Shown: in pieces, positions 17,138 through 55,132 of the stretch
Layout of the letters: every line of letters begins with the position of its first letter
Numbering within the stretch: position 1 is the stretch's first letter
Origin: Sipunculus nudus
Taxonomy: Eukaryota; Annelida; Sipuncula; Golfingiida; Sipunculidae
NCBI GenBank assembly: GCA_026874595.1
Contig: CM049309.1
Span: 8,147,076-8,211,075, forward strand
Reading direction: 5' to 3'
DNA: 64,000 bases
Notes under the pieces: generated by a model
Seen by the model: the letters and a program-made list of their open reading frames with translations, nothing else
Databases searched by the model: none
Told to the model about the DNA's origin: nothing
Program-made: the position numbers and the translations under genes

Positions 17138-18306
17138 CTAGAATACAGGTAGTCGACAAGCGACTACGTGTATCCACCTAAATCAGAGTGGAACGGGTGA
17201 AGTGAGGCATGGTTTGAGTGGCAAGGGGAAATAGAGTGAAGTGTTGCACATTAGCATGGATGTCTGCAGCCAAATGGTGTATGTAGGTTGCGCCACCTAC
17301 CACAAAATCCAGAAAGCCGTCCAAGTTGTATACATATGCAACATTTGAGGCAGATAAGTCAAACCACTATATGTTTATATGTGATTTTAGCCCGTGGCAG
17401 ACAAACAGATGGACGCTGTGCAAAAATGGTTAAAGGTGGCGTATGATAAAGAGCTATGTGAGAACTATACACAATCAAAACTTTGGCCCAATCGGTCAAA
17501 CGGTTCCCAAGGTATGAGCTTGGATGTCTGCTGCATAAACTAGAATGCAGGTGGCGCCACCTGTCATAAAATCAAGAAAGCTATCTAGGATGTATAATCC
17601 TGCAAAATTTTAGGCAGATATGTCAGACCACTGCCGAGATATGAGTGATTTTATCCCATGGCAGACAAACAGACGGGAGCTGTGCAAAAATGGCTGCAGG
17701 TGGCGCCACCAGTTTTGCGTATGATAATGAGCTATGTGAGATCTATACACATGCAAAATTTTGGCCCAATCGGTCAATGGTTCCCGAGATATGAGCTTGG
17801 ATGTCTGCAGCGTAAACGTGAATGTAGGTGGCGCCACCTGTCATAAAATCAGAAAAGCTATCCAGGATGTATAAGCATGCCGAATTTCAGGTGAATTAGT
17901 CAAATCACTGCAGAGATATGAGTGATTTTTACCCAAGGCAGACGAACAGATGGACACTGTGCAAACATGATTGCAGGTGGCGCCACCATTTTTTGTGTAT
18001 CTTATAAAGCTCTCCAAGGGCTACATTTGTGCAAAAAAAATTTTCCTGATCCGTCGAACGGTTCCCGAGATATGTGGGTTTATGTGTGGAAACAGACACA
18101 CAAACGGACGCAGAGCGCAGAGGAAAGGTCAAAGGTCAAAACAAAATCGGGGCGCAGCAGTTCACATGTGACCCGAACATAATCCCGGGTTTCGTAAAAA
18201 TTCCGCCCAGCGGTTACGGAGGAGTTCTCCGGACTGCTACGCGGCGGCGGCGGCGGCGTGCAGCTGAAAACATAGTATCCGCAAAACTCTGTTTTGGCGG
18301 ATACAA
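17138..18306 (-). mobile_element. HINE-A, complete copy
   Basis: It starts CTAGAATACAG with hairpin GTAGTCGACAAGCGACTAC, immediately followed by GTATCCACCTAAATC, and ends with GTTTTGGCGGATACAA before T. The core holds about 2.5 units of about 270 bp, each with two GGTGGCGCCACC-type palindromes (near 17285, 17436, 17550, 17699, 17826 and 17976). A CGG run at 18241-18257 precedes the terminus. It is flanked by A and T, and by TGACCTTTGACC repeat sequence on both sides, so it is nested. Confidence 0.9.
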
Positions 18307-18985
18307 TTAGTTATTTCTTCATGCAAAAAGACCCATATATATGAAGTCTGAATCAAATTCAGTGATGCATAGATGTGGCATATGTGAAAGACTGAAGGTT
18401 TGGGTTGAACAGTTTCACTTGAAATATGTTCACAAGCATTTAGAACAATATTGTGACCTTGACCTTTGACCTTTTGAACTCAACATCAATAGGCTTCTTC
18501 TCCTATTGGTAGGTAAGCCATATATGACAGGTGGAAAGTATAGATTGAAAAGTTTGCTGAAAATGACTCCACGCAAGAAGAGGGTGCTGTCAACTTGACC
18601 TTTGACCTCAAAATCAACAGGTCTTTTCCCCTGTTGGCAGAGAAGCGATATCACTGCTGAAAGGTTTGGAATGATGGTCTAGCTTGAAATGTGTCCTAAA
18701 CCTTTTCAAAGAAGTGGATCCTGTGACCCTGACCTTTGACCTTGTGACCTCAACATCTATAGGATTCTTCTCCCACTTAGTAGGTGAGCTATATGTGAAA
18801 GATCAAAGAATTGGGATGAAAGGTTCGGCTTAAAATGCATCCTGAGGCTTTTCAAAGAAGTTGGTTCTGTGACCTTGACCTTTGACCTTGTGACCTCAAA
18901 ATAATTATGGTTCTTCCCCTGTTTGTAGGTGAGCTGTATGTGAAAGATGGAAGGTTTGGGATGAAAATTTTGGCTAAAAGAATTA
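18307..18985. repeat. ~140-146-bp array of TGACCTTTGACC units
   Basis: Four units (TTGACCTTTGACC near 18460, 18594, 18731 and 18877) each continue with CTCAACATC.ATAGG.TTCTTCTCC and GGTAGGTGAGC. They are the half-unit equivalent of the 289-bp array at 52545-53800. Related sequence resumes on the left of HINE-A near 16970-17137. Confidence 0.7.
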
Positions 18986-20405
18986 TTTCTAGGGGGTGCA
19001 AACACACCCCATAACTTGGAGAATATAGGTCGCAGTGACCTAATTTCAGGTTTGCAAGGATATCTTTTTAGAACCTCTAAGACTGCATAGGGTTCATGGC
19101 CCTAGCCCCTATGGTTACGATTTGTGCCCTGCTAACGGCCGGACAGACAGACGGAAGGACGCCGGACAAAGACCCATCGCTATAGCCCAGCATGACTGCA
19201 AGTCAGCTGAGCTAAAAAGTCGAACAATACAGGTGACGCCACCAGTCTGCAGGAACTGAAGGAACATCTCATGATCAATATGTATGCCAAAAATCATGAC
19301 CATCAGTGATGTAGTTATTGAGATATTGAAGTTTTTGTATGAAATTTTTGACTATTCTGGGGGGTACTTTGGGGCCCCATAGCTCGAAGGATATGGGTAA
19401 CAGAGACCTAATTTCTGGTTTCCAAGGAGATTTTTCATGGACCTCTCAGTGTGTCAAGAATTAAGATTCTAGGTCAAGTCTTTATGATTTGTGCCTTGTT
19501 AACAGATGTTCACATTTTTAAAGGTCTCAAAAATAGAGAAAAAAAATTCGTAATAAATCGAAAAATACAGGTGGCGTGACCAAGTCTGCAGGAAGTGATG
19601 GAACATCTCATGATCAATATGTATGCCAAAAATCATGACCATCAGTCAAGTAGTTAATGAGATATTGAAGTTTTTGTATGAAATTTTTTACTTTTCTGGG
19701 GGGTACTTTGGGGCCCCATAGCTCAAAGGATATGGGTAACAGAGACCTAATTTCTGGTTTCCAAGGAGATTTTTCATGGACCTCTCAGAATCCTAAGTTA
19801 CAAGGTTCTAAGTCCAGTGGTTACAATTTGTGCCCTGTTAACGGACAGAGGGCCGGACGGACGACAGACAAACAGTGATCGCTATAGCTCAGATGACTTA
19901 CAGTCAGCTGAGCTAAAAAACAGATCAATGTAGGTGGTGCCACCAACACCTCGATTTCAGATATGGCAAACATTGGCATAAAAATTTGGTGATGACAGCT
20001 CCAGCTGTTTCTGAGATTTTAAGTACAGTATGCTTTTTTGCACAGATGACTAAGTTCAACCTCCTGTAACTCGGTCAAAAATCATTGAACTGAAACCATT
20101 AGAACAAACTTGAGAGAGATTGTTCCAAGGAACATTTCTGTGAATATTGGACAATTTGGCTGGACAGTTTCAGAGAAGAAGATTTTTAAAGGTTTTTAAG
20201 CTTTTACTCTATTAAATCTAAATTAATGTAGATATCCAATAATTAGCTCCAGGGCACAAAGTTTCACATGTGACTTATTCTTACATGTAATTCGGAGCTG
20301 CTAGCCCCGATGGTTTCTGACTTACAGCCATGGACAGGGGATGGCTGACGACGGACAGACGACGCTGCGCCATAACATAAGCTCACAGGTTCGCTAAAAA
20401 AAAAA

Positions 20406-23935: not shown

Positions 23936-23940
23936 CAGAT

Positions 23941-24180: not shown

Positions 24181-24886
24181 CTAGTCATTTCTTGGCGCTG
24201 CAGGTGCCATAGTATCCCCAGGAAATTAACCACCCCCCGCTTCATGAATAAGCCCCCATCTTCAAAGGCATATACTGACACTTGGCAACCCACCAAGGTG
24301 ACTTTCATATATCAACATGAGAAACAATATTTTTCACCAAGTATGGGATTATTCAAGGTCAAGGTCACTCTAATAGGAGAGGTCATGTTCCCAATTTAAA
24401 TATACCTGATCCCATTACCCATATCTATGTGTATGTATAATAAGAAAGAAATCTGTCCATAAGTTCTTTGAGTTATAATGCTCACAGTACTGTCAAAAGG
24501 CAATGATGGGTGAATTAAAAGGCGCTAAAACAAGAAAAAGATAATAGGTGGCACCACCGGTTTCTGGTACTTGACAATGCTATCCAAGATCTTCTGCAAC
24601 TAGATTTTTGGATCAATCCATGCAATATTTTGTGAGATATTTAAGAATTTGTGTAATTTCCTACCATAATGGACCCTATTCCAGGTCAAGGTCACTCTCC
24701 TAGAAAAGGTCATGAATTGATTTTATACATAGAGTTCTTTGTCTCACCCATATCTATGCACATGTTATATGTTTAGTAAAGATCCGTGTAACATTTTTTT
24801 AGTTATCTCACAGACATAATTTATCTGCGGAAGTGGTGAGACTGACATAAAACCATAGTATCCCCTGACTTTGTCTGGAGATACAA
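24181..24886 (-). mobile_element. HINE-B, compact complete copy
   Basis: It starts CTAGTCATTTCTTGGC, where GGCGC-TGCAGGTGCC forms the hairpin, then TATCCCCAGG, and ends GTATCCCCTGACTTTGTC then TGGAGATACAA before T. One core palindrome (GGTGGCACCACC, about 24547) and two TCAAGGTCAAGGTCACTC boxes are present. A and T flank the element. At 706 bp it is the shortest complete HINE-B here. Confidence 0.88.
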
Positions 24887-25496
24887 TGATGCCAATTTAA
24901 GTTTCCAATAATTCTGTCCAGGACTTTCAGAAGAGTTCTCCAGAAATGAACACTGTGGGGTAAGTGGTGGAACCTAGCTGGAATATTCTGACAGATACAG
25001 TTTCATTAAAACATCAGCATGTACAACATATAGGTATGAAATCATTGTGATAGCAGACTGACATCACATTCAGACAACTGTTTCCTAGATTGAGGTCAGG
25101 ACTGACAAACACTGGAACACACCTTAGTTCCTGGTCTGTGGAATTTAACACCTAATTATGCACATAATTATTTTGCTTGTTAGTTTGCACTCTGAATGAC
25201 AGACTGACTCATCAGTAAATAAACATGGTTACTCTGTAGCACTTTACAGTGATCCTGCTGATTATGTGTTGATAAACCCTAATTCTTCCTTGAATCTGAC
25301 TCCCCATCACACCCTTGTCATTACGCTAACTTGTTATCACTAACAGTGACCTGCGTTTTCATTATCATCAAACTGATCATAAATCTGCCTCCATACTGTT
25401 ACTTCCATCTCATAATCCTATGCAAGGCATCATGGTGGTTAAGGCTGATGAACGTTTGTTCATTCTCTTAGCAATTATCACCTGATCATTTGAGAA
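24887..25496. other. Unassigned unique sequence
   Basis: No repeats shared within the window and no convincing exon were recognised. Confidence 0.5.
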
Positions 25497-25537
25497 CAAG
25501 GGACCCATGGGTCACTGCGCTCAGCTGAACTTTATTT
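25497..25537 (-). mobile_element. HINE-C left end joined to HINE-B core
   Basis: CAAGGGACCCATGGGTCA and GCTCAGCTGAAC are followed at once by HINE-B core. The HINE-B hairpin end is missing, so this is either a chimeric element or a deletion junction. Its partner right end may be at 32687. Confidence 0.7.
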
Positions 25538-25863
25538 AATATATATTTATATGCATAATATGAAAGAAATCTGTCCATTAGTTTTTGACTTATAATGCTC
25601 ACAGTACTGATAAGTGGCAATGATGGGGTATTAAACAGCACAAAAACAAGTAAAAGAATAACAGGTGGCGCCACCTGTTTCCGGTACATGACAATACTAT
25701 CCAAGATCTTCGGTCAAGTTGATTTTCGGACCAATCCATGCATCCCTTATTGAGATATTAATGATTTTGTTTAATTTTCACCATATATGGCAATATTCAA
25801 GGTCAAGGCCACTCTAATAGGAAAGGTCATGACCCAAATATATATATATACATCATCCCATAT

Positions 25864-26684: not shown

Positions 26685-27153
26685 CCATATTCCATGTCTA
26701 TGTATATGCATAATATGAAAGAAATCTGTCCATAAGTTTTGACTTATAATGCTTACAGTACTGTTAAGTGGCAATGAAGGGGGTATTAAACGGCACGAAA
26801 ACAAGTAAAGAATAACAGGTGGCGCCACCTGTTTCCGGTATATGACATTACTATCCAAGATCTTTGGTCAAGTTGATTTTTCGACCAATCCATACATCCC
26901 TTGTTGAGATATTAATGATTTTGTGTGATTTTTACCATATATGGCAATATTCAAGGTCAAGGCCACTCTCATAGAAAAGGTCATGACCCCATTTGGTCAA
27001 AAGGTCATTTTAATAAACATCATCCCATAACCCATATTTATGTATATGCATAATATAAAAGAAATCTGTCCATTAGTTTTTTACTTATAATGCTCACAGT
27101 ACTGTCAATTAGCAATTTTGGGGGTATTAAATGGCACAAAAACAATTAAGGAA

Positions 27154-28611
27154 CTAGAATACTGGTAGTCGACAAGCGACTACGTGTATCCGCCAAAATC
27201 AGAGAAGGACTGGTGAAGTGAGGCATGGATTAAGTGGCAAGGGGAAATAGAGTTACATGTGTTACTTATAGAATGGATCTCTGCCACATAAACATGATTG
27301 TAGGTGGTGCCACCTGTTATTTGAATTAGAAACTATCTAAATGGTATACACATGCAAAATTTCATGTGGAAAAGTCAAACCACTGCAGAGATGTGGGTGA
27401 TTTTATCCCTCCGCAGACAAACAGATGGACGCTGTGCAAAAATGGCTGTTGGTGGCGCCACTATTTTTGTCTATGTTATAAAGCTATCCAAGGGCTACAT
27501 TTGTGTAATTTTTTTTTCCTGATTGGTCAAACGAGTCCGGAGATATAAGCATTAATCTCTGCAGTGTGAATGTGAATGTAGGTGGCGCCACCTGTCATAA
27601 AATCAAGAAAGCTATGCGGGATGTATACGCATGCCGAATTTCAGGTAAATTGGTCAAACCACTGCAGAGATATGAGTGATTTTAACCCAAGGCAGACAAA
27701 CAGATGGACCCTGTGTGAAAATGGCTGCAGGTGGCACCACCATTTTTGTGTATATTATAAAGCTATCCAAGGGCTACATTTGTGTAAAATTTTTATCCTG
27801 ATTGGTCGAACGGTTCCTGATATATGAACTTGGATGTCTGCAGCGTGAAGGTGAAGGTAGGTGGCGCCACCTGTCAAAAATCAAGAAAGCTATCTAGGAT
27901 GTATAAGCATGCCGAATTTCAGGTGAATTAGTCAAACCACTGCAGAGATATGAGCAATTTTAACGTAAGGCAGACAAACAGATGGACGCTTTGCAAAAAT
28001 GGCTGCAGGTGGCACCACCATTTTTGTGTATGTTATAAAGCTATCCAAGCGCTACATTTGTGTAAAAAAATTTCCCTGATCGGTCAAACAGTTCCTGAGA
28101 TATGAGCTTGGATGTCTGCAGCGTTAACGTGAATGTAGGTGGCGCCACCTGTCATAAAATCAAGAAAGCTATCTAGGATGTATACGCATGCTTAATTTTA
28201 GGTGAATTAGTCATACCACTGCATAGATATGATGGATTTTAACCCAAGGCAGATGAACAGATGGACACTGTGCAAACATGGTTGCAGGTGGTGCCACCAT
28301 TTTTTGTGTATGTTATAAAGCTATCCCAGGGCTACATTTGTGTAAAAACTTTTCCTGATCGGTCAAACAGTTCCCGAGATATGTGGGTTTATGTGTGGAA
28401 ACAGACGCACAAACGGACGCTTGGCAGAGAGGAAAGGTCAGAGGTCAAGGTCACTTGGTTAGGCACCAGTTCACATGTGACCCGATAATTTGTGTAAGTT
28501 TCAGAAAAATCCGTCCAGTAGTCTCAGAGGAGTTTTCCGGAAACGAATGCGGCTGCGGCGGAACCCAGTCAAAAACATAGTATCCGCAAAACTTCGTTTT
28601 GGCGGATACAA
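27154..28611 (-). mobile_element. HINE-A, complete, nested in HINE-B
   Basis: It runs from CTAGAATAC with hairpin GTAGTCGACAAGCGACTAC to GTTTTGGCGGATACAA. Core palindromes lie near 27301, 27451, 27582, 27730, 27861, 28009, 28138 and 28287, giving a unit of about 277 bp. The flanks GGAA and TAATAGGTGG rejoin to the intact HINE-B sequence seen at 54204-54216 (GAATAATAGGTGG), showing A^T insertion without duplication. Units 2-4 are more alike than to unit 1. Confidence 0.92.
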
Positions 28612-28966
28612 TAATAGGTGGCACACCAGTTTCTGGAACATGACAACCCTATCCATGATCTTCCATCAACTTGATTTTGGGATCAATCCGTGCAAGATTT
28701 CTTGAGATATTTAAGAATTTTTGTGATTTTCCCGAAAACTGGACTTGTTCAAGGTCAAGGACACTCTCCTAGTAAAGGTCATGACCTCGTTTTTAATACG
28801 CATCGTCCTCAAACCCATATCTATACATATACCAAGTTTGGTAAAGATCCGTGAAATATTTTTTGAGTTATCGCGCCAACAAGATTTATTTGAGGCGGCG
28901 GCGGCAGTGACGGCGGCGGGACTGGTATGAAAACATAGTATCCCCTGACTTTCTCTGGGGATACAA

Positions 28967-29412
28967 TAATACACATTTAATTTATTCACTGTAATAAAAT
29001 GCAGTAAAATTAGAATTATACTTTTTCAAAAAGTATAACTATATATTGTACTCTGTAATATATGTAACTTGTGACCTGAAACCTTTAATCATGCAATAAT
29101 TATATAAGGGAAAAAAAAGTTATGGGCCAAAGACATACCACAGAATACTGTGGATTCAGAATTGTTCCTTGGGTTTTTATTTTCGTGGAATTTGTGGGTA
29201 ACCTTTATCCACAAAATTAAAAACCTAGCAATCATTAGGTTTAATAAAAGTCCATCGACCCTGTGCATTAAGTAATCGTGTTGGCCCGCTTTCATCATCC
29301 ATGCTAGTAAATTATACTGATAAATAATACGCTAAGAAAACAATATGTAACTTGTGACCTGAAACCTTTTAATCATGCAATAATTATATAAGGGAAAAAA
29401 AAGTTATGGGCC
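28967..29412. repeat. 75-bp direct repeat pair around unknown segment
   Basis: A block containing GTAACTTGTGACCTGAAACC and ATTATATAAGGG lies at about 29058-29134 and again at 29345-29422. The 210 bp between them hold no recognisable element. It could be a local duplication or the remnant of an insertion. Confidence 0.6.
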
Positions 29413-29929: not shown

Positions 29930-31194
29930 CAAGCCGACATATTCATAAACTTTTTATCAAGATATCTAGAATAATAAAAGATGCAGTACTTTCATTGTTA
30001 AAGGTCCAATAGTTCTGCCAAAAATCATTCTAGTAAACTTGAACAAAGGCCACCTAAGAATAATTTTTGTGCAATGTTACAGAAGATATAATTGAAATAA
30101 TAATTTTGTAGAAGAACACTATTGCAGTCCTCAGTTTGAAAAAGACATAATAATGGCCATAAGACCAACTTCAGTTTTTCACAACTCAACCAAAAATCAA
30201 CAAACTCAGTATATTCTGATATGATTGAAAGAACCATGTCCTAGGATAATTTCTTTTGAAAAATTGACCAATCAACTTGACAGTTTCATCATTAAGCTGA
30301 AAGAGGCTAAAATTATGAGGTTTTTTGCCCATAAAAAACAGGTCAATGTAGGTGGCACCACTAAATCTACAACTTCAAATATGAGTCATGTGACCAACAT
30401 TTGCACAATACCTGGTAATGCTAGCTTCTGTCATTTCTGAGAGTACTATGTCAGTATGCTTACTTGGCCGAATGACTTTTCAAATTTGTGCAACTCCACT
30501 AAAATTCATCAAATGCAAATCATTTGAACATATTTGAGAGGGCTTGCCTCTGGAATTATTTATGTAAAATATTTAACAATTTGGCTGGACCGTCTACATG
30601 AAGACGACTTTTAAAATATTGTCAGCTTTTTCCTTATAAAATTTAAGTAAATGCAGATAGCAAAAAAATAAGCTGAATCCCACAAAATTTGATATGTGAC
30701 AGATTATTGCATAAAATCTGGGAATGGTAGCACCTGCTATTCCTGAGAAATTATGGATTAATGTACAGTTGACCAATGACCCCCGTACAAAAATAGGTCA
30801 ATTCAGGTGGCGCCACCAATACCTGAATTTCATATATGACTCATGTGACCAACACTGGCAACAAATTTGGTGATGATAGCTCTGGCTGTTTCTGAGACTG
30901 TCATTTTAGTATGCTTTTTTGGACAGATGACTAAGTTCAACTTCCTGAACAAAACTGAGGGAGATGGTATAAAAGATTATTTCTGTGAAATATTGAACAA
31001 TTTGGCTTGAGTGTTTCGTCAGAGAAGATTTTTTTTAGCTTTTTCTCTATAAAATTGAAGAAAATTTTCAGATGGCCAATTTTTTGCATTAAATTTCATG
31101 ATGCTAGCTCCAATCATTTTCAAAATAGTATGGGTAAACGTACAGAAGACAAATGCCGCCACACCATCGCATTACTTCACAGGTTCACTTAAAA
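29930..31194 (-). mobile_element. HINE-D copy, left end unresolved
   Basis: Core palindromes GGTGGCACCACT (about 30350) and GGTGGCGCCACC (about 30806) lie about 457 bp apart, with CAATTTGGCTGGAC and GACTAAGTTCAACTTCCTG boxes. The right end is CACAGGTTCACTTAAAA. The part before 30200 is degraded core. Confidence 0.75.
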
Positions 31195-31539
31195 TTACTA
31201 CAGATGCATATTGAATGCAAAATTGTAATACAGATTCATCTCACTGATGGCAAAATCTAGAATTAATTTGACCATGGATACCAATTATTTATAATCCATG
31301 TACAGCCGTCTTTATATACCCAGAGAGAGCTGTATAGCTGTGATTGTAAACATTGCCTGGCATGAGGAATATCTAAAAATCATAAATCTAAATTAAAAAA
31401 AAATGATTTTAAAAAACATTCTTGTCAATATTAACCATAGATAACCTGAAATCTAAATGTCTAGAGGAATGATGTAATAAATGCTGATAAACTGGTGCCA
31501 GTCTAGATGTATCTAGATGTATCTGTGTATCTGCTTCAC

Positions 31540-32604
31540 ACAGCTAACATATATGGTAAAATGACTCAATTGAACCTTTATAATTCAGCCAAAATTCATT
31601 CTTTGGAACCATAAAAGACAATTATTATAAGAATCATTCAGGGGATTATTCTTGTAAAATATTAAACAAATTGGCCTCAGTAGGGTCAGTCAAAAAAAAT
31701 TTTACAGGTTTATAACTCATATGGGAAAATACAGCAAAATGGCTAAGTTAAGCTTCCCATAACTCAGCCAAAAATCACTGAACCAAAACCATTTGAACAA
31801 ACTTGAATTATCAACATCTAAGGATAATTAATGTGTGAGATTTAAGAATTTGGCCAAGTGGTTATTGAGGAGAAGATCTTTGTAGCCACTGAGGTAAAAT
31901 GGGCTGTTACAGCATATGACTACATTCAGCTTCCCATAACTCAGCCAAAAGTCACTGAACTTAGACCATTTGAACAAATTTCAGAAAGCACTACCCTAGG
32001 ATCATTTCTGTGCGATATTAAACTATTTGGCCATATGGTTTCAGAGAGAAGTGTTTTGTAGCCGTCAGTATTATACGGGCACTGATGACCCTCGTACAAA
32101 AAAGGTCGATGCAGGTGGCGCCACCAATACCTCAATTTCAGATATGTCTCATGTGAACAACATTGGCATAAAATTTGGTGATGATAGCTCCAGCCGTTTC
32201 TGAGATTGTAATTTTAGTATGCTTTTATGGACAGATGACTAAGTTCAACTTCCTGCAACTCGGCCAAAAATCACCAAACTTAAACCATTCAAACAAACTT
32301 GAGAAAGATTATTCCAGGAATCATTTCTGTGAAATATTGGACAATTTGGCTGAACAGTTTCGGAGAAGAAGATTTTTAAAGCTTTTTTAGCTTTTTCCCT
32401 ATAAAATCTAAGAAAATGCAGTTAGCCAAAAAATAAGCAAAATCCAATATAGTTTTTTAGATGACTAATTTTTTTAATAAAATTTCGTGATGCCACCTCT
32501 TGCCGTTTTCAAGATAGTATGGGTTAACGTACAGACGACGGACAACGGCCGACGGACGCCAGACGACGCCACACCATCGCATAAGCTCACAGGTTCGCTA
32601 AAAA
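31540..32604 (-). mobile_element. HINE-D copy
   Basis: Repeated core boxes (AACTCAGCCAAAA.TCACTGAAC, GGCGCCACCAATACCTCAAT at about 32118) lead to a well-preserved end: ACGGACAACGGCCGACGG, then CACCATCGCATAAGCTCACA and GGTTCGCTAAAA before T. The left hairpin end is not found. 31195-31539, between this and the previous copy, holds nothing recognisable. Confidence 0.78.
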
Positions 32605-32687
32605 TGTGTAAATGTATTTAATAATTCTAACAAGGCCTACAGGCCATTCCTATACCTCAGCTGACTTTCAGGCCGCTAAGCTTAAAA
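32605..32687 (-). mobile_element. HINE-C right-end remnant
   Basis: CTATACCTCAGCTGACTTTC and GGCCGCTAAGCTTAAAA form a diverged HINE-C terminus. The next HINE-C left end follows directly with no spacer. Confidence 0.65.
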
Positions 32688-34739: not shown

Positions 34740-34771
<32 letters not shown>

Positions 34772-37672: not shown

Positions 37673-37898
37673 AGTGCTTATCAAATGCCACTCAAGGCAG
37701 AAACCTGACCTCTATAGCATACAAAACTAGATATTTCTTGGGACCGCAGGTGCCATAGTATCCCCAGACAATTAATCCCCTCCTTCAAAAATAGGCCCCC
37801 CATCTTCAGCAACAATTAATATCAGACCACACTCATAGAAAAGGTCACTCTCACAGAAAAGGTCATGACCCGAATTTCAATATACATCATCCCCTAAC
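37673..37898 (+). repeat. Inverted duplication, left arm
   Basis: This matches the reverse complement of 41052-41276 at roughly 95% by eye. The arm contains 54 bp of flanking DNA plus the left end of HINE-B, including CTAG and the GGGACCGCAGGTGCC hairpin. Because flank is included, the duplication postdates HINE-B insertion. Confidence 0.88.
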
Positions 37899-38569: not shown

Positions 38570-38742
38570 TGTTACACCCCGATTGTGAAATTGCCCATTT
38601 CATGTAATGGGCAATGATTTTGCCCAGTTCATGAAATGGGCAACCACTTTGCCCATTTCATGTAATAGGCAAAATGACTAAATTCAGCTGCCCATTTCAT
38701 GAAATGGGCAAGAAAACTGTTGCCCATTTCATGAAATGGGCA
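38570..38742 (+). repeat. Ginger left inverted repeat with palindrome array
   Basis: The first 113 bp mirror the right end. Five copies of a 22-bp palindrome (half TGCCCATTTCA) lie at 38592, 38621, 38650, 38689 and 38721, spaced 29-39 bp. They are likely transposase-binding or structural sites. Function is inferred. Confidence 0.88.
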
Positions 38743-41022: not shown

Positions 41023-41051
41023 TATGCATAATATGAAAGAAATCTGTCTGA

Positions 41052-41276
41052 TAGGGGGATGACGTATATTGAAATTCGGGTCATGACCTTTTCTATGAGA
41101 GTGACCTTTTCTATGAGTGTGGTCTGATATTAATTGTTGCTGACGATGGGGGGCCTATTCTTAAAGGGGGGGATTAATTGTCTGGGGATACTATGGCACC
41201 TGCGGTGCCAAGAAATATCTAGTTTTGTATGCTATACAGGTCAGGTTTCTGCCTTGAGTGGCATTTGATAAGCACA
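41052..41276 (-). repeat. Inverted duplication, right arm
   Basis: Reverse-complement copy of 37673-37898, including the HINE-B CTAG end at 41219-41222 facing the other way. It replaces about 80 bp of HINE-B core between CTGTC and GCACAAAAACAAG. Confidence 0.88.
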
Positions 41277-41805
41277 AAAACAAGTAAAGAATAATAGGTG
41301 GCGCCACCAGTTTCTGGAATATGACAACCCTATCCACGATCTTCCATCAACTTGATTTTGGGATCAATCCATGCAAGATTTCTTGAGACATTTAAGAATC
41401 TGTGTGATTTTCCCCAAAGGACCTATTCAAGGTCAAGGACACTCTCCTAGTGAAAGTCATGACCTCATTTTAAATAGGCGTCGTCCTCTCACCCATATCT
41501 ATACATATACCAAGTTTGCTAAAGATCCGTGAAATATTTTTTGAGTTATCGCGCCAACAAGATTTATATGCGGCGGCGGCAGTGGCGGGACCGGTAAGAA
41601 AACATAGTATCCCCCGACTTTGTCTGGGGATACAATAACTGATTGAAAACTGACTGAGTATATAAGCAAAATCTTGCTAATTCTGATTTGACAACAGGCT
41701 GGTAGCTGGCGACAACAAAAATTCTTCATCTTAATCCAGCTGAGATCAGAGATTAATCAATTTTACCTTCCTAAGGAACCCCCTAGTGATGCAGCAAATA
41801 TTTAC

Positions 41806-43470: not shown

Positions 43471-44327
43471 CAAGTGACCCATGGGTCATGACGCTCAGCT
43501 GACTGGTAAGAGATTTGCAAAAGGAAATTTTATCATCTGAATGGTAGTATATAACCATTCAACTGAAGCATCAAACAGATTAACCAACAGGCTGAGATTG
43601 TGTCTGTATTAATATATCTCAAAAATAGAGAAAAAATGTGTAAACTTTAAAAAAATACAGGTGGCTCCACCAGTCTGCAGAAACTAATAAAAATACTTAA
43701 TGGTCAATATTAATGCAAAGAAGCATGGTGGTCTCTGGATTAGTTGTTCAGATACTTCAGCTTTTGTATCAAATTTTTCATTATTCTGAGGTAAACTTTT
43801 GAGTCCTATAGCTTGATGGATATGGGTGACAGAGACCTAATTTCAGGTTTCCACAGACACTTTTCATGGGCCTCCTTGCATGACAAGAATGAAGATTCTA
43901 GGTCCAGTTGTTACAATTTGTACCCTGTTGACAGATAACCACATCTTTAAAGGTCTCAAAAATAGAGAAAATAATTCGTAAAAATTTGAAAAAACAGAGG
44001 TGGCACACCCAGTCTGCAGAAACTGATGGAACATGCCATGATCATTATGTATGCCAAAAATCATGAGCATCAGTGTTGTAGTTATTGAGATACTGGGGTT
44101 TTTGTATCAAATTTTTCATTATTCTGGGGGGGGGGGGGTATTTTGGAGCCATACAGCTAAATGGATATGGGTAACAGAGACCAAATTTCAGGTTTCCATG
44201 GAGATTTTTCATAGGTCTCTCAGAATGTCAAGAATGAAGATTCTAGGTCCAGTCTTTACGATTTGTGCCCTGTTAACAGATGTTCACATTTTTAAAGGTC
44301 TCAAAAATAGAGAAAACAATTCGTAAA

Positions 44328-47300
44328 CAAGTGACCCATGGGTCATGATGCTCAGCTGACTGGGAAGAGATTCGCAAAAGGAAATTTTATCATCTGAATG
44401 GTAGTATATACCCAATCAACTGAAGCATCAAACAGATTAACCAACTGGCCAAGATTGTGTCTGTATTTATATATCTCAAAAATAGAGAAAAAATGCGTAA
44501 AAAATACAGGTGGCTCCACCAGTCTGCAGAAACTAATAAAAAGACTCAATGGTCAATATGCATGCAAAGAATCATGGTGATATCTGCATTAGTTGTTCAG
44601 ATACTTCAGCTTTTGAATCAAAATTTCCATTATTCTGAGGGATACTTCGGAGTCCTATAGCTTGAAGGATATGGGTAACAGAGACGTAATTTCAGGTTTC
44701 CACACACACTTATCATGGGCCTCCTTGCATGACAAGAATGAAGATTCTAGGTCCAGTTGTTATAATTTGTGCCATGTAAACAGATGACAGCATCCTTAAA
44801 GGTCTCAAAATTAGAGAAAAAAATTCGAAAAATTGAATAAAATATAGGTGGCACCACCAGTCTGCAGACACTGATGAAACACTCCATAAACAATATCCAA
44901 TCCTAAGAATCATGGTGATCTCTGCATTAGTTGTTCAGATACTTCTGCTTTTGTATCAAATTGTTCATTATTCTGAGGGATACTTCGGAGTCCTATAGCT
45001 TGAAGGATATGGGAAACATTGACCTAATTTGTACCCTGTTGACAGATAACCACATCTTTAAAGGTCTCAAAAATAGAGAAAAAAATTCGTAAAAATTTGA
45101 GAAAATAGAGACCTGTGGCGCACCCAGTCTGCAGAAACTGATGGAACACCTCATGATCAATATGTATGCCAAAAATCATGACCATCAGTGTCGTAGTTAT
45201 TGAGATACTGCAGTTATTGTATCAAATTTTTCATTATTCTTAGGGGTATTTTGGAGCCATACAGCTTAAAGGATATGGGTAACAGAGACCTTATTTCAGT
45301 TTTCCATGGAGACTTTTCATGGGTCTCCCTGTGTGTCAAGAATGAAGATTCTAGGTCCAGTCTATACAACTTGTGCCCTGTTAACAGATGTTCATATCTT
45401 TAAAGGACGCAAAAGTAAAGAAAAAATTCTTAAAAAAACCTGAACAAATATACGTGGTGCCACCAGTCTGCAGAAACTGATGAAACATTCCATTATCAAT
45501 ATCCATGCAAACAATTATGGTGATCTCTGCATTAGTTGTTCAGATACTTCAGCTTTTGTATCAAATTTTTCATTATTCTGAGCTGTACTTTGGAGTGCCA
45601 TAGCTCAAAGGATATGGGTAACAGAGACCTAATGTCAGGTTTCCATTAAAACTTTTCATGGGTCTTCTTGTGTGTCAAGAATGAAGATTCTAGGTCCAGT
45701 CTTTACAATTTGTACCCTGTTGACAGATAACTACATCCTTAAAGGTCTGTTAAATAGAGAAAAAAAAATTGTAAAAATTTGAAAAAATACAGGTGGCGCC
45801 ACCATTCTGCAGGAACTGATGAAACACCTCTTGATCAATATGTATGCCAAAAATCATGACCATCAGTGATGTAGTTACTGAGATGTTGCAGTTTTTTTTA
45901 TCAAATTTTCCATTATTCTGGGGGGTAATTAGGAGCCCCACAGCTCAAAGAATATGGGTAACAGAGACCTAATTTCAGGTTTCCATGGAGACTTTTCCTG
46001 GGTCTCCCTGTGTGTCAAGAATGAAGATTCTAGGTCCAGTCTTTACGATTTGTGCCCTGTTAACAGATGTTCACATTTTAAAAGGTCTAAAAATAGAGAA
46101 AACAATTTGTAAAATATTAAAAAATACAGGTGGTGCCACCAGTCTGCAGAAACTGATGAAACATCTCATGATCAATATGTATGCAAAAAATCATGACCAT
46201 CAGTGATGTAGTAAATGAGATTTTGAAGTTTTTGTATGAAATTTTTTACTATTTTGGAGGGTACTTTGGGGCCCAATAGCTCGTAGGATTTGGTAACAGA
46301 GACCTAATTTCTGGTTTCCATGGAGATTTTTCATAGGTCTCTCAGAATGTCAAGAATGAAGATTCTAGGTCCAGTCTTTACGATTTGTGCCCTGTTAACA
46401 GATGTTCACATTTTTCAAGGTCTCAAAAATAGAGAAAACAATTCGTTAAAAAATTGAAAAATACAGGTGGTGCCACCAGTCTGCAGAATCTGATGAAACA
46501 TCTCATGATCAATATGTATGCCAAAAATCATGAGCATCAGTGGTGTAGTTGTTGAGATATTGAAGTTTTTGTAGAAATTTTTCACTATTCTGGGGGGTAC
46601 TTTGGGGCCCCATAGCAGGAAGGATATGGGTAACAGAGACCTAATTTCAGGTTTCCATGGAGATTTTTCATAGGTCTCTCAGAATGTCAAGAATGAAGAT
46701 TCTAGGTCCAGTCTTTACGATTCGTGCCCTGTTAACAAATGTTCACATTTTTCAAGGTCTCAAAAATAGAGAAAACAATTCGTAAAAAAATTGAAAATAC
46801 AGGTGGCGCCACCAGTCTGCAGAATCTGATGAAACATCTCATGATCAATATGTATGCCAAAAATCATGACCATCAGTGGTGTAGTTAATGAGATATTGAA
46901 GTTTTGTAGAAATTTTTCACTATTCTGGGGGGTACTTTGGGGCCCCATAGCTGGAAGGATATGGGTAACAGAGACCTAATTCCAGGTTTCCAAGGAGATT
47001 TTTCATAGGTCTCTAAGAATGTCAAGAATGAAGATTCTAGGTCCAGTCTTTACGATTTGTGCCCTGTTAACAGATGTCCACATTTTTAAAGGTCTCAAAA
47101 ATAGAGAAAAAAATTAGTAAAAAATCGAAAAATACAGGTGGCGCCACCAGTTTGCAGGAACTGATGGAACATCTCATGATCAATATATATGCCAAAAATC
47201 ATGACTATCAGTGATGTAGTTAATGAGATATTGAAGTTTTTGTATGAAATATTTGACTATTCTGGGGGGTACTTTGGGGCCCCATAGCTCGAAGGATATG

Positions 47301-48853
47301 GGTAACAGAGAACTACTTTCAGGTTTCCATGGAGACTTTTCATAGGTCTCCCTGTGTGTCAAGAATGAAGATTCTAGGTCCAATTTGAACCCTGTTGACA
47401 GATAACTACATCCTTAAAGGTCTCAAAAATAGAGAACAAGTGACCCAGGGGTCATGACGCTCAGCTGACCAGGAAGACATTGACAAAAGTAATTTTAGCA
47501 TCTGAATGTCAAATCTGAATGAAATACTTTTTCCAAACTTGACCTTTTGTATAAAATCATCCAATATTCATTGGTGTACTATGGAGCTCTGTAGCATGAA
47601 GGATATGGGTAACAGACACCTATTTTCAAGGTTTACAAGATGACTTTTCCATCGACCTCCTAGGATGTCAAGTAAGAAGATTCCAGGTCTAGCGCTTATG
47701 ATTTGTGCCCTGTTAACAGACAGACGCCTGGATGGCCGGACGGGCGATGGACAAAAGGTGATCCCTATAGCTTAGATGACTTTAAGTCAGCTGAGCTAAA
47801 AATTGAAAAAATACAGGTGGCGCCACCAGAATGCAGAAACTGATGAAACATTTCATGATCAATATCCATGCAAAGAATCATGGTGATCAATATAATAATT
47901 GTTCAGATACTTGAGCTTTTGTATCAAATTTTCAATTATTCTGGGGGGTACTTCGGAGCCCCATAGCTCAGAGGTTATGGGTAACAGAGACCTAATTTCA
48001 AGTTTTTAAGGAGACTTTTCATGGGCCTCTCAGCATGTCAAGAGAGAAGATTCTAGGTCCAGTTGTTACGATTTGTGCCATGTTAACAGATGACCGCATC
48101 TTATGAGGTCTCAAAAATAGAGAATAAAATTCGTAAAAATAAAAAAAATACAGTAGGCGCCACCATACTGCAGAAACTGATGACACATTCCATGATCAAC
48201 ATCCATGCAAATAATCATTGTGATCACTGCAATAGTTGTTTAGATACTTGAGCTTTTGTATCAAATTTTCCATAATTCTGGGGGGTACTTCAGAGCCCCA
48301 TAGCTCAAAGGTTATGGGTAACAGAGACCTAATTTCAGGTTTCCAAAGAGACTTTTTATGGGCCTCCCTGCATGTCAAGAGAGAAGATTCTAGGTGTAGT
48401 CGTTACGATTTGTGCCCTGTTAACAGATGACCGCATCTTAAGAGGTCTCAAAAATAGAGAAAAATATTGGTAAAAATCGAAAAAATACAGGTGGCGCCAC
48501 CAGTCTGCAGAAACTGATGAAACACTCCATGATCAATATCCATGCAAAAAATCATGATGATCAATGCATTAGTTGTTCAGATACTTGAGCTTTTGTATCA
48601 AATTTTCCATTATTCTTGGGGGTACTTCGGAACCCCATAGCTCGAAGAATATAGATCACAGTGACCTAATTTCAAGTTTACAAGGAGAATTTCCATAGAC
48701 CTCCCAGGATGTCAAGTAAGAAGATTCCAGTTCTAGCGATTACCATTGTGCCCTGTTAACGGACAGACGCCCGGACGGCCCGACAGCCGGACGGACGACG
48801 GACAAAAGGTGATCCCTATAGCTCAGATGACTTTCAGTCAGCTGAGCTAAAAA
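44328..48853 (-). mobile_element. HINE-C, middle nested copy
   Basis: The left end CAAGTGACCCATGGGTCA interrupts a core unit after GAAAACAATTCGTAAA. The right end CAGCTGAGCTAAAA near 48853 is followed by the rest of an A-rich link and a core palindrome. Pairing is inferred from the parenthesis-like order of ends. Core units inside and outside this copy belong to the same family. Confidence 0.7.
47437..47802 (-). mobile_element. HINE-C, innermost miniature copy, 366 bp
   Basis: It starts CAAGTGACCCAGGGGTCA and ends AGTCAGCTGAGCTAAAAA before T. It sits between AAAAATAGAGAA and TTGAAAAAATACAGGTGG, which together make an intact core link. It has one partial core unit without the GCCACC palindrome, so it is the minimal form of the element in the window. 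Confidence 0.88.
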
Positions 48854-49587
48854 AAAATGTAAAAATTTGAAAAATATAGTTGGCGCAACCAGTCTGCAGA
48901 ATCTGATGAAACAACTCTTGATCAATATGTATGCCAAAAATCATGACTATCAGTGATGTAGTCAATCAGATATTGAAGTTTTTTAATGAAATTTTTTACT
49001 ATTCTGGGTGGTACTTTGGGGCCCCGTAGCTTGAAGGATATGAGTAACAGAGACCTAAGTTCTGGTTTCCATGGAGACTTTCATAGGTCTTTCAGAATGT
49101 CAAGAATGAAGATTCTAGGTCCAGTCTTCACGATTTGTGCCCTGTCAACAGATGTTCACATTTTTAAAGGTCTCAAATATAGAGAAAACAATTCGTGAAA
49201 AATCGAAAAATACAGGTGGCGCCACCAGTCTGCAGCAACTGATGGAACATCTTATGATCAATATGTATGGCAAAAATCATGACTATCAGTGATGTAGTCA
49301 ATGAGATATTGAAGTTTTTTTATGAAATTTTTTACTATTCTGGGGGGTACTTTGGGGCCCCATCGCTCGAAGGATATGGGTAACAGAGACCTAATTCCAG
49401 GTTTCCAAATAGATTTTGCATGGACCTCTCTGGATGTAAAGTAAGAAGATTCCAGGTCCAGCGGTTAGGATTTGTGCCTTGTTAACGGACAGATGGGTGG
49501 ATGGCCGGATGGCAGGACGGCCGGACAGCCGACGGACAAATAGTGATCGCTATAGCTCAGATGACTTACAGTCAGCTGAGCTAAAAA

Positions 49588-50285
49588 TCAATCATATATT
49601 TTATATAAATGCAATGTCCAATTAATCATACAATAACATTCAATACAAATGGCAGAAGATTTCATAATGTGTCTGTAATCATCTAAATTATTAACTCTTA
49701 ATGAGAAAAAAAGTCTGCTAACAAGAGTACCATTAATTCATTAACTATTCTAATCTTTATTTGCTTTCTTATCTTTTAGGACAGTTAAAATAATGAGATA
49801 ATGGTTTTATCAAACTTTTGAGAGGACCATAGAGTACACTGTCAACACTGTACCAATGGCTAGCATTTGTACTCCACATAAAAGAGAGTGGACCTTTCTT
49901 TCTTTTACTGGGATTTAAAACTAGGCTGATTTCACTGAGAGTCAGGTATGACACCACTGTACCATTTTTGCCTCCGCCACAATGGTAAGTATTCCATCCC
50001 GGCTGTTTGTGTGTTTTGTTAACAACATAACACAAATCAAGAACAGAATCCCATGAAATTTTCAGGGCACCTTTGGGAATGGGGCAATGAAGAATCAAAT
50101 AGATTCTGTGTGGGTCTGGCTCATGATCCGGATCCAGGAAGGACTTCCAGAAACATTCCCAAATGTGCAGTCACATATGCCTGATTGAACATGGGAATAT
50201 GGGTCTATTTTAAATTAATGCAATCACTTGATCAGGAACTTATGCACCAATGAACCTGAAAATAAGGGCCAATAACAAGTGAAAA
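49588..50285. other. Unique island between element blocks
   Basis: It holds the minus-strand open frame listed separately. No element ends. Confidence 0.5.
49769..50110 (-). CDS. Unidentified open frame (~110-120 codons)
   Basis: The frame starts at an ATG at 50098 or earlier and contains LHCPIPKGALKISWDSVLDL, WNTYHCGGGKNGTVV and LSEISLVLNPSKRKKG. It ends in TAA, with AATAAA about 10 bases downstream. Composition is protein-like and unlike the AT-noise frames nearby. It could be a terminal exon, a retro-copy or chance. I recognise no family. It is on the same strand as the exon candidates at 36-42 kb. Confidence 0.35.
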   Translation of the reverse strand, partial: HRIYLILHCPIPKGALKISWDSVLDLCYVVNKTHKQPGWNTYHCGGGKNGTVVSYLTLSEISLVLNPSKRKKGPLSFMWSTNASHWYSVDSVLYGPLKSLIKPLSHYFNCPKR

Positions 50286-51895
50286 CTAGAATACAAGTAG
50301 TCAACAAGCAACTACCTGTATCTGCCTAAATCAGAGTGGGATGGGTGAAGTAAGGCATGGATTGAGTAACAAGGGGAAATAGAGTGAGGTGTGTTGCATA
50401 TTAGCATGGATGTCTGCAGCCGAAATGTGTATGTAGGTTGTGCCACCTACCACAAAATCCAGAAAGCTATCAAAGTTGTATACAAATGCAAAAAGTCAAA
50501 CCACTACTGAGATATGAGTGATTTTACCCCACGGCAGACAAACAGATGGACCCTGTGCAAAAATGGTTGCAGGTGGCGCCACCAGTTTTGTGTATGATAA
50601 AGAGCCATGTAAGATCTATACACATGCAAAATTGGGGCCTAATCGGCCAAACGGTTCCCGAGATAAGAGCTTGGATTTCTTCAGAGTAAATGTAGGTTGC
50701 GCCACTTGTCATAAAATTAAGAAAGCTGTCCAGGATGTATAAACCTGCAAAATTTCAGGTGGATAAGTCAAACCACTGCAGAGATATGAGTGATTTTATC
50801 CCAAGGCAGATGAACAGATGGATGCAGTGCATAAGTGGTTGCAGGTGGCGCCACCAGTTTTGCCTATGATAAAGAGCTATGTGAGATCTATACACATGCA
50901 AAATTTTGAGCCAATCAGTCAAACAGTTCCTGAGATATGAGCTTGGATGTCTGCAGAGTAAACCTGAATGTAGGTGGCGCCACCTGTCATAAAATCAAGA
51001 AAGCTGTCCAGGATGTATACACATGCAAAATTTCAGGTGGATAAGTCAAACCACTTCTGAGATATGAGTGATTTTATCCAAAGGCAGATGAACAGATGGA
51101 CCCTGTGCATAAGTGGTTGCAGGTGGCGCCACCAGTTTTGCCTATGATGAAGAGCTATGAGAGATCTATACACATGCAAAATTTTGGCCCAATCGGTCAA
51201 ACGGTTCCCGAGATATGAGCTTGGATGTCTGCAGAGTAAACTTGAATGTATGGTGTCACCATCTGTCATAAAATCGAGAAAGCTTTCCAGAATGAATAAT
51301 CCTGCAAAATTGCAGGTGGATAAGTCAAACCACTGCTGAGATATGAGTGACTTTATCCCAAGGCAGATGAACAGATGGATGCTGTGCATAAATGGTTGCA
51401 GGTGGCACCACCAGTTTTGCCTATGATGAAGAGCTATGTGAGATCTATACACATGCAACATTTTTGCCCAATCGGTCAAACAGTTCCCGAGATATGAGCT
51501 TGGATGTCTACAGAGTAAACTTGAGTGTAGGTGGCACCACCTGTCATAAAATGGAGGAAGCTGTCCTGGATGTATAAACCTTGCAAAATTTCAGGTGGAA
51601 AAGTCAAACCACTGCTGAGATATGAGTAATATTATCCAAAGGCAGATGAACAGATGGACCCTGTGCAAAAATGGTTGCAGGTGCTGCCACCATTTTTAGT
51701 GTATAATATAAAGCTATCAAAGGGCTACATTTGTGCAAAATTTTTAGCCTGATTGATCAAAAGGTTCCTGAGATATGTTGGTTTATGTGTGGAAACAGAC
51801 ACACAAATGGATGCTGGGCAGCGAGGAAAGGTCAGAGGTCAACCAAAAATGAGGGCGCAGCATGTCACATGTGACCTGATGATAAACCTGATTCA
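50286..51895 (-). mobile_element. HINE-A, 3'-truncated copy
   Basis: The left end CTAGAATACAAGTAGTCAAC retains the hairpin, with paired changes (GTAGTCAACAAGCAACTAC is now mismatched at one pair). Core palindromes near 50573, 50845, 50972, 51123, 51402 and 51531 give a unit of about 277 bp, about five units. The terminal module breaks off after AGCATGTCACATGTGACC, and the GGCGGATACAA end is missing. Confidence 0.85.
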
Positions 51896-51957
51896 CCTAA
51901 AATGCAAACCAAGTTTTTTCAAACAGTTGAAAGATATAGTTCCAATAACCGGGAATT

Positions 51958-52399: not shown

Positions 52400-53860
52400 G
52401 ATTTTTTTAAAGATGTGTCCTGTGACCTTGACCTTTGACCTCATACCCCAAAATCAATTCGGGTCTTGCTTTTCCGATTGGACATATGCAAGTCAAGTTT
52501 GAAATCTGTACATCCATAAAGCAGGAATTATCATCCAGAAACTAATTTTTGGACAGATGGCTCCTGTGACCTTCACCTTTGACCTTGTGACCTCAAAATT
52601 GATAGTGTTCTTCCTCTCTTGGCAGGAGAACTATATGTGCAAGATGAAAGATCTGAGATGAAATGTTTGGCTGAAAATGCATCCACATCTTTTTAAAGAT
52701 GTGTCCTGTGACCTTGACCTTTGACCTCATGACCCCAAAATCAATTTTGGTCTTGCTTTTCCAATGGGACATATACAAGTCAAGTTTTGGAATCAATACA
52801 TCAATAAAAGCAGGAATTATCATCCAGAAACTAATTTTTGGACAGATGGCTCCTGTGACCCTTCACCTTTGACCTTGTGACCTCAAAATTGATAGGGTTC
52901 TTCCTCTCTTGGCAGGTGAACTATATGTGCAAGATGAAAGATCTGAGATGAAATATTTGGCTGAAAATGCATCCACATCTTTTTAAAGATGTGTCCTGTG
53001 ACCTTGACCTTTGACCTCATGACCCCAAAATCAATTGGAGTCTTGCTTTTCCAATGGGACATAAACAAGTCAAGTTTGAAATCCATACATCAATAAAAGC
53101 AGGAATTATCATCCAGAAACTAATTTTTGGACAGATGGCTCCTGTGACCTTCACCTTTGACCTTGTGACCTCAAAATTGATAGGGGTCTTCCACTCTTGG
53201 CAGGTAAACTATATGTGTAAGATGAAAGATCTGAGATGAATTGTTTGGCTGAAAATGCATCCACAATCTTTTTAAAGAGGTTTCCTGTGACCTTGACCTT
53301 TGACCTCATGACCCCAAAATAAATTTGGGTCTTGCTTTTCCAATGGGTCTAATACAAGTCAAGTTTGAAATACATACATCAATAAAAGAAGGAATTATCA
53401 TCCAGAAACTAATTTTTGAACAGATGGCTCCTGTGACCTTCACCTTTGACCTTGTGACCTCAAAACTGATAGGGGTCTTCCTCTATTGGCAGATGACTTA
53501 TATGTGCAAGATGAAAGGTCTGAGATGAAATGTTTGGCTGAAAATGCATCCACAATCTTTTTAAAGATGTGTCCTGTGACCTTGACCTTTGACCTCATGA
53601 CCCCAAAATCAATTGGAGTCTTGCTTTTTCAATGGGACATATATAAGTCAAGTTTGAAATCAATACATCAATAAAAGCAGGAATTATCATCCAGAAACTA
53701 ATTTTTGGACAGATAGCTCCTGTGGCCTTGACCTTTGACCTTGTGACCCCAATATTATATGGATCATCCACTATTGGCAAGTGAGCTATATATTCAAGAT
53801 GGAAGACCTAGGATGAAAGTTTGGCTTAGAATGCATCCACAATATCTTTTAAAATGCTAG
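52400..53860. repeat. 289-bp tandem array, five close copies
   Basis: The marker GGACAGATGGCTCCTGTG recurs at 52551, 52840, 53129, 53418 (variant) and 53706, spacing 289, 289, 289 and 288 bp. Each unit has two related halves, one with TGTGACCTTGACCTTTGACC and one with CTTCACCTTTGACCTTGTG. Units are nearly identical, implying recent amplification or homogenisation. Phase-matched open frames of about 62 codons repeat in the array and are not genes. Confidence 0.92.
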
Positions 53861-54483
53861 TCCATTGACCCTGACCTTTGACCTCATGACCCTAGAACCT
53901 ATAGGGTTCTTACTTTAGTGGTGGGCCATACATAAGTCATGTTTGAAATCTATATGGCTATCAAAACTGGAGATATCATAAGAGGAGTGTGATTTTCACC
54001 ATATATGGCAATATTCAAGGTCAAGGCCACTATCATAGGAAAGGTCATGACCCCAATTTAAATAAACATCATCCCATAACCCATACCTATGTATATGCAT
54101 AATATAAAAGAAATCTGTCCATTAGTTTTTTACTTATAATGCTCACAGTACTGTAAGGTGGCAATTTTGGGGGTATTAAACGGCATGAAAACAAGTAAAG
54201 AATAATAGGTGGCGCCACCAGTTTCTGGAACATGACAACCCTATCCATGATCTTCCATCAACTTGATTTTGGGATAAATCCATGCAAGATTTATTGAGAT
54301 ATTAAAGAATTTGTGTGATTTTCCCCAAAATTGGACCTATTCAAGGTCAAGGACACTCTCCTAGTAAAGGTCATGACCTCATTTTAAATAGGCGTCGTCC
54401 TCTTACCCATATCTATACATATACCAAGTTTGGTAAAGTTCCGTGAAATATTTTTTGGGTTATCGCGCCAACAAGATTTATAT

Positions 54484-54508
54484 GCGGCGGCGGCGGCGGC
54501 GGCGGCGG
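54484..54508. repeat. (CGG)n tract before HINE-B terminus
   Basis: Eight CGG triplets at 54485-54508. Shorter versions occupy the same position in the copies ending at 28966 and 41635, and a similar run precedes the HINE-A end at 18306. Confidence 0.9.
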
Positions 54509-55132
54509 GACCGGTATGAAAACATAGTATCCCCCGACTTTGTCTGGGGATACAATAATTCTTGTAAAGTTTAAACCAATCAGCTTAACAGTTGCTAGAA
54601 GAGTTTAAAATTACATTTTCGCTTGTAAAAACACATCAATGTAGGTTGTGCCACCAATACCTCAATTTCAGATATGACATATGTGACAAACATTGGTATT
54701 AAATTTAGTGATTATAGCTCTAGCTGTTTCTGAGATTTTAATTTTAGAGTGCTTTTTTGGACAGATGACCAAGTTCAACCTTCTGTAACTTGGTCAAAAA
54801 TCTCCTAACTGGAACCCTTTAAACAAACTTGAGAGAGATTGTTCCAAGGATCATTTCTGTGATATATTGGACAATTTGGCTGGAAAGTTTAGGAGAAGAA
54901 GATTTTTTAAAGCTTTTTAGCTTTTTCCCTATAAAATCTAAGAAAATGCTGTGGGGAAAAAAATAAACAAAATCCAAAAATTTTTCAGATGACTGATTAT
55001 TTGCAAAAAAATTGGTGATGCTAGCTTGTGCCATTTTTGAAATATCTATGGTTAACGTACAGACAACACAGGACACATGATGTACGACGGACTACGACGC
55101 ACCATTGCATAAGCTCACAGGTTCGCTAAAAA

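What the first reader, a model, noticed from the sequence alone, without database searches (positions are those of the whole stretch)
17138..54555. One palindrome, GGTGGCGCCACC, sits in the core units of four otherwise unrelated element families
HINE-A (two per unit), HINE-B, HINE-C (337-bp type) and HINE-D cores all contain this 12-bp palindrome, preceded mostly by TACA, TGTA or TGCA. Flanking core and terminal sequences do not otherwise align. Variants are mainly GGTGGTGCCACC or GGTGGCACCACC, the two products of CpG decay at the centre. Conservation of one site across families suggests a shared protein-binding or processing site, or parasitism of one factor.
Basis: partly seen in the sequence, partly recalled or inferred. 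Interest (0 to 1): 0.8.

Follow-up and report, generated by a model that had tools for sequence, protein, structure and literature searches.

The report
Conserved palindrome in mobile-element core repeats
A 12-letter DNA palindrome sits in about 110,000 places of this animal genome because four families of 'hitch-hiker' mobile elements inherited it from one ancestral repeat unit and kept it while the rest diverged; the same elements also all point the same way over stretches up to a megabase, which may record the direction of DNA copying.

Summary
In detail: 44 sites with at most one mismatch in the window (0.03 expected) and 111,757 exact copies in the 1.43-Gb genome (reversed control 14). 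The elements are HINEs (non-autonomous Helentrons). The claim that the families do not otherwise align is wrong on one side. The ~100 bp after the palindrome is homologous across A, B, C and D (16 invariant columns; shuffles 4.0±1.8, maximum 9); the sequence before it is not. So the site is inherited from one ancestral core module, yet it stayed 12/12 identical (plus a 5' A) while its neighbours diverged. Within families it decays almost like its flank. That fits a site needed by mobile source copies, not by fixed copies. The best binding candidate is CTCF: YAGGTGGCGCC is its core, canonical CTCF motifs are ~70-fold enriched genome-wide, and a CTCF-like gene exists. But the upstream CCA is missing, so this remains a hypothesis (~0.35). 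Outside the brief: HINEs of all families are co-oriented in blocks up to ~1 Mb (adjacent ends <300 kb: 78/96; control repeat 6/19). Insertion coupled to replication-fork direction, as known for bacterial IS200/IS605, would explain it, but replication data are needed.

The parts
17138..18306 (+). HINE-A copy; palindromes at 17286 (1 mismatch), 17550, 17699, 17827, 17976
19007..20245 (+). C-type units (19232, 19570) and a D unit (19933), next to HINE right-end hairpins near 19201 and 19902
24328..24893 (+). HINE-B copy, palindrome 24547 (CA variant)
25497..25862 (+). HINE-B core (palindrome 25664) behind a left end ACAAGGGACCCATGGGTCACTGCGCTCAGCTG at 25497
26685..28983 (+). HINE-B core (26818), then a HINE-A array of about four 279-bp units (27303-28298), then B-type tail
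30328..32614 (+). HINE-D units with palindromes or variants at 30351, 30806 and 32114
33044..36066 (+). HINE-C units (33458, 35685) with nested HINE left end (33768) and right ends (35655, 36061)
37841..38570 (+). HINE-B units, 328-bp spacing (38026, 38354)
41272..41636 (+). HINE-B copy, palindrome 41297
43471..49583 (+). HINE-C array (337-bp units, palindromes 43660-49226) with nested HINEs in the same orientation
47442..47798 (+). short palindrome-free HINE inserted in the C array: left end GACCCAGGGGTC...GCTCAGCTG, right-end hairpin CTATAGCT...AGCTA; same orientation as its host
50282..51888 (+). HINE-A array of 279-bp units, ten palindromes or variants (50436-51680)
52401..54559 (+). HINE-B copy: 289-bp CCTGTGACCTTGACCTTTGACCT array, then core with palindrome 54208, then (GCG)n and a GTATCC/GGATAC hairpin
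54627..55133 (+). HINE-D copy with decayed palindrome 54644 (GGTTGTGCCACC)

Best explanation
The palindrome is the left edge of an ancestral HINE core module of about 110 bp: YA-GGTGGCGCCACC, about 20 variable bases, then a recognisable scaffold (GCTATCCAAGATCTATA..CATGCAAAATTT..GATC.GTCAAAC.GTTTCTGAGATAT). All four families inherited it, and later acquired or replaced different upstream sequence and termini (shown, by consensus alignment). During that divergence the palindrome and the A before it were kept unchanged in the source lineages, while inserted copies decay nearly like their flanks and fastest at the CpG (shown). The inferred step is that a sequence-specific DNA-binding protein must recognise the site in the element that is about to move, or in its active chromatin, so that sources which lose the site leave few descendants. 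The best single candidate is the host insulator protein CTCF, whose core reads YAGRKGGCRSY. Every family offers this core on the forward strand; A1 and many B copies, where T and then G or A follow the palindrome, offer it on both strands.
For: Enrichment 111,757 against 14. Downstream homology: pairwise z 2.6-5.1 for A against B, C and D, 3.1 for C against D and for B against C; 16 invariant columns against 4.0±1.8 in shuffles. Palindrome 12/12 invariant in five consensuses, flank 18/142. Sites chosen by flank only: non-CpG palindrome identity 0.90-0.99 against flank 0.86-0.93. Canonical CTCF motif CCASYAGRKGGCRS 5,310 copies against 76 reversed; 10 of the first 50 listed carry AGGTGGC. CTCF zinc-finger query: one match 53% identical over nearly the whole query, 243 bits; next best zinc-finger gene 136 bits. 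Single-strand hairpin of the palindrome is no better than shuffles, which argues against a hairpin role.
Against: The CCA that begins the canonical CTCF motif is absent before the HINE site (AATGTA, GTTGCA, AATACA, AATGCA). The last CC of the palindrome is not read by the CTCF core. No binding or methylation data exist for this genome. The DNA-contacting residues of the CTCF-like gene could not be read. B against D alone shows no homology (z 0.3). The consensuses rest on 7-24 copies per family.
Confidence: 0.6

Rival explanations
1. A different palindrome-binding factor, host or Helentron-encoded, that acts as a dimer is the user of the site; CTCF resemblance is coincidental.
For: All 12 palindrome bases are invariant, including the CC that CTCF's core does not read. 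The genome holds many Helitron_like_N proteins with open frames up to 2,426 aa, so element-encoded factors exist.
Against: The base before the site is A in 83 of 88 units, but the base after it is T or A by family: an asymmetry not expected of a pure dimer site.
Confidence: 0.35
2. Passive inheritance: the palindrome is just part of the ancestral module and has no function.
For: The downstream block is homologous across families. Within families the site decays nearly as fast as the flank.
Against: Across five consensuses 12/12 palindrome columns are invariant against 13% of flanking columns; about 1.7e-11 if columns were independent. The families were partly recognised through the palindrome, which favours consensuses that hold it.
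Confidence: 0.12
3. A single-strand hairpin used in rolling-circle transposition.
For: HINEs are rolling-circle elements and do carry a strong terminal hairpin (-12.5 kcal/mol, z -6.9).
Against: The core palindrome folds to only -2.3 kcal/mol, no better than shuffles. It is absent from some HINEs, such as 47442-47798.
Confidence: 0.05
4. For the orientation blocks only: HINEs insert into A-rich stretches of older HINEs in fixed polarity, so islands grow co-oriented without any replication effect.
For: Nested insertions into the A-rich part of C units exist in the window (33768, 44328, 47437, 35655). Elements are flanked by A runs on the same strand.
Against: Many ends lie in DNA with no or almost no repeat match in the 264-kb sample (4315, 7207, 15652, 22730, 25497, 36061, 43471, 49583, 62274) and still point the same way. 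Coherence spans 0.06-1.17 Mb on C1.
Confidence: 0.3

Closest known systems
HINE / DINE-1, non-autonomous Helentrons (PMC4067079) and Cg_HINE of Crassostrea gigas (PMC7492417)
   Same: Inverted subterminal repeats, terminal hairpin and palindrome, GTCC-type microsatellite, tandem central repeats, T/A-rich target.
   Different: Those papers describe unrelated central repeats, or two conserved segments within one group; no core palindrome shared across families with different termini was found in the passages read.
BIV160/Cg170 satellite family of bivalves (PMC5139131)
   Same: Ancient core monomers that diverge but keep short conserved motifs, spread by pearl/HINE elements.
   Different: The published BIV160 primer sites do not contain GGTGGCGCCACC. 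Homology to BIV160 was not tested.
CTCF sites spread by retrotransposons in mammals (PMC3368268)
   Same: A mobile element would carry CTCF core motifs through the genome (abstract).
   Different: Here a rolling-circle element, a palindromic core, no CCA, and no binding data.
IS200/IS605 bacterial single-strand transposons (reviewed in PMC5371812)
   Same: Orientation follows a regional polarity; both use HUH-type single-strand transposition by established knowledge.
   Different: Bacterial, and tied to measured replication direction; here replication direction is not known.

Membership tests
HINE (non-autonomous Helentron) | Inverted subterminal repeats at both ends | tested here: met
   GCTCAGCTGA at the left, TCAGCTGAGC at the right, in C-type elements; A/B and D ends only glimpsed
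HINE (non-autonomous Helentron) | Terminal stem-loop / palindrome | tested here: met
   Hairpin TATAGCTCAGATGACTTATAGTCAGCTGAGCTA z -6.9; palindrome GACCCATGGGTC at the other end
HINE (non-autonomous Helentron) | Microsatellite of GTCY type next to one end | tested here: met
   (ACGG)n, complement of (CCGT)n, next to the hairpin
HINE (non-autonomous Helentron) | Insertion in T-rich (A-rich on the other strand) sequence | tested here: met
   Flanks AAAC.. and ..AAAAA at nearly all ends; empty sites not checked
HINE (non-autonomous Helentron) | Autonomous Helentron partner with matching ends | tested here: inconclusive
   143 Helitron_like_N matches, several with open frames over 2,200 aa; their ends could not be fetched
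CTCF binding site | Core YAGRKGGCRSY | tested here: met
   YAGGTGGCGCC in the A1, A2, B, C and D consensuses
CTCF binding site | Upstream CCA of the canonical 14-15-mer | tested here: not met
   No CCA before SYA in any family consensus
CTCF binding site | Occupancy by CTCF | not testable with these tools
   No ChIP data

The most novel reading that the evidence does not exclude
HINE insertions are strongly strand-biased relative to the germline replication fork, so a quarter of a million core units form a fossil map of replication direction; the same elements have seeded more than 100,000 CTCF-like core motifs, so one element clan marks both replication polarity and potential loop anchors in an animal genome.
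Probability: 0.2. Interest if true: 0.92.

Novelty: new variant of a known kind. Interest (0 to 1): 0.62.

Why it matters
A constrained binding-type site kept across element families with different ends would show that HINE central repeats are not filler. It would also give a testable candidate factor for how these very abundant repeats spread. If CTCF binds, one clan of mobile elements has spread over 100,000 potential insulator motifs. If the Mb-scale co-orientation reflects fork direction, HINEs could be read as a map of replication polarity in a non-model animal, and would be eukaryotic evidence for fork-coupled insertion of a rolling-circle transposon.

Tried and rejected
Selecting sites by the palindrome itself inflated its apparent conservation; redone with flank-based selection. 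A first impression that all elements of the genome are on the + strand was a sampling effect: totals are balanced (16,572 against 16,535; 172 against 145). Core hairpin function rejected. Strand composition in the non-repeat DNA of HINE-rich loci (A over T) was not used, because unmasked old HINE remnants could cause it. The control repeat at 57353-57701 is sparse; its concordance rests on 19 neighbouring pairs. A literature search for a link between Helitron, transposon orientation and replication fork directionality found nothing.

Full report
What was checked. The window lies at C4:8,147,076-8,211,075 of a 1.43-Gb genome. GGTGGCGCCACC with at most one mismatch occurs 44 times between 17286 and 54219; shuffles expect 0.03. 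In the genome there are 111,757 exact copies against 14 for the word read backwards. In 200 kb sampled from 15 chromosomes, 36 core units were found by their flanks, 14 of them with an exact palindrome, which scales to about 250,000 units and agrees with the genome count. Of 15 exact palindromes seen in that sample, nearly all lie in A-D type cores; one (L009:3697) has another sequence context.

What the elements are. The C-type elements have a left end ACAAG[G/T]GACCCATGGGTCAYNNCGCTCAGCTG (12,000 exact copies genome-wide) and a right end of (ACGG)n followed by the hairpin TATAGCTCAGATGACTTATAGTCAGCTGAGCTA. Read on the other strand this is the layout of oyster HINEs: subterminal repeat with its inverted copy, GTCC-type microsatellite, tandem core, subterminal repeat and palindrome (PMC7492417, PMC4067079). 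A and B copies end instead in a GTATCC/GGATAC hairpin, with (GCG)n before it in B; D has yet another end. The genome holds many Helitron replication-protein matches, several with open frames above 2,200 aa.

Are the cores unrelated? No. Consensus sequences of A1, A2, B, C and D were built from 7-24 copies each. After the palindrome, pairs of families align well above dinucleotide shuffles (A1-A2 z 9.0, A2-B 5.1, A2-C 4.7, A1-D 3.4, C-D 3.1; but B-D 0.3). Before it they mostly do not. A joint alignment of the 100 bases downstream has 16 columns invariant in all five, against 4.0±1.8 (maximum 9) in 120 sets of shuffles; upstream it has 4 against 4.2.

Is it only inheritance? Probably not. The palindrome is 12/12 invariant across the five consensuses, with A before it and C or T before that; only 18 of 142 flanking columns are invariant. 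Yet within families, with copies picked by flank only, the non-CpG palindrome bases are only slightly more conserved than the flank (0.945 against 0.926 in A2, 0.933/0.911 in A1, 0.920/0.861 in C, 0.989/0.898 in B, 0.982/0.883 in D), and the CpG decays fastest. Strong constraint among lineages with near-neutral decay among copies is the pattern expected of a site that matters while an element is mobile and not afterwards. That last step is inference.

Candidate factor. YAGGTGGCGCC fits the CTCF core YAGRKGGCRSY (motif from general knowledge). In this genome the canonical motif CCASYAGRKGGCRS is found 5,310 times against 76 for the reversed control, at scattered places, and 10 of the first 50 listed carry AGGTGGC. 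A zinc-finger gene at C11:67,037,833 matches the CTCF finger array at 53% identity over nearly its whole length, far ahead of the next zinc-finger gene. CTCF is described as present in the bilaterian ancestor, with its motif enriched at domain borders of a squid (PMC10658181). Against this, the upstream CCA is missing in HINEs, and the strict 12-base symmetry asks for more than the CTCF core. I put CTCF at about 0.35, and an unknown dimeric factor at about the same.

Beyond the finding: orientation blocks. In the 264 kb at hand all 88 core units, and all HINE ends whose direction can be read, have the same orientation. Genome totals are balanced, but on C1 the patterns run in blocks: + from 0.064 to 1.169 Mb, - from 1.231 to 1.479, mixed to 1.68, + from 1.713 to 3.193 with two exceptions, - from 3.245. 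Different families agree: D against A/B/C 25 of 26 nearest neighbours, left ends against cores 68 of 71. Adjacent left ends less than 300 kb apart agree in 78 of 96 cases; a non-HINE repeat in 6 of 19 (Fisher p 4e-5). Farther into C1 the blocks are shorter. Palindrome-free HINEs follow the same orientation (47442-47798), so the palindrome does not cause it. The simplest regional polarity known to act on single-strand transposons is replication-fork direction (IS200/IS605, PMC5371812). Self-insertion into A-rich HINE cores in fixed polarity is a serious rival and certainly adds to it. On C1 the +/- switches at 1.2 and 3.2 Mb are sharp (about 60 kb) while the -/+ switches are mixed over 130-230 kb, as initiation and termination zones would predict; this is two cases of each and only suggestive.

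Limits. Dense orientation data cover mainly C1:0-15 Mb. No functional data exist.

Noticed in passing
G000 C1:0.06-15 Mb; window C4:8.15-8.21 Mb; L009, L017, L019, L023, L024: HINEs of all families are co-oriented in blocks up to about 1 Mb, with unrelated families agreeing; a control repeat is random.
   Followed up: partly
window 15652, 25497, 32688, 33768, 43471, 44328, 47437, 57699: Second palindrome, GACCCATGGGTC, is the terminal palindrome of the HINE left end (ACAAG[G/T]GACCCATGGGTCAYNNCGCTCAGCTG), 12,000 exact copies genome-wide.
   Followed up: yes
genome-wide: Canonical CTCF motif CCASYAGRKGGCRS is about 70-fold enriched over its reversed control in this genome.
   Followed up: partly
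window 37674-41275: Two 96% identical inverted segments (37674-37894, 41055-41275) flank an open frame at 39872-40501 (-): probably a TIR DNA transposon inserted among the HINEs.
   Followed up: no
window 1367-1496 (-), 57353-57701 (+); L019:845-1202 (-): Unnamed dispersed repeat with TTGCAAAACNNCNTTTGCAAAACTCTG, about 3,500 copies, orientation random; used as control.
   Followed up: partly
C11:50385293, C13:66180677, C8:80139053, C4:36174940 and others: Helitron_like_N matches in uninterrupted frames of 2,200-2,400 aa: likely autonomous Helitron/Helentron elements with intact frames.
   Followed up: no
L009:3697: Exact palindrome preceded by TTGCA in a context of none of the four families; a possible fifth family.
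   Followed up: no
L009, L017, L019, L023, L024, window (non-repeat parts): A exceeds T on the strand of HINE orientation (T-A skew -0.035 against -0.004 elsewhere); may be replication skew or unmasked HINE remnants.
   Followed up: no
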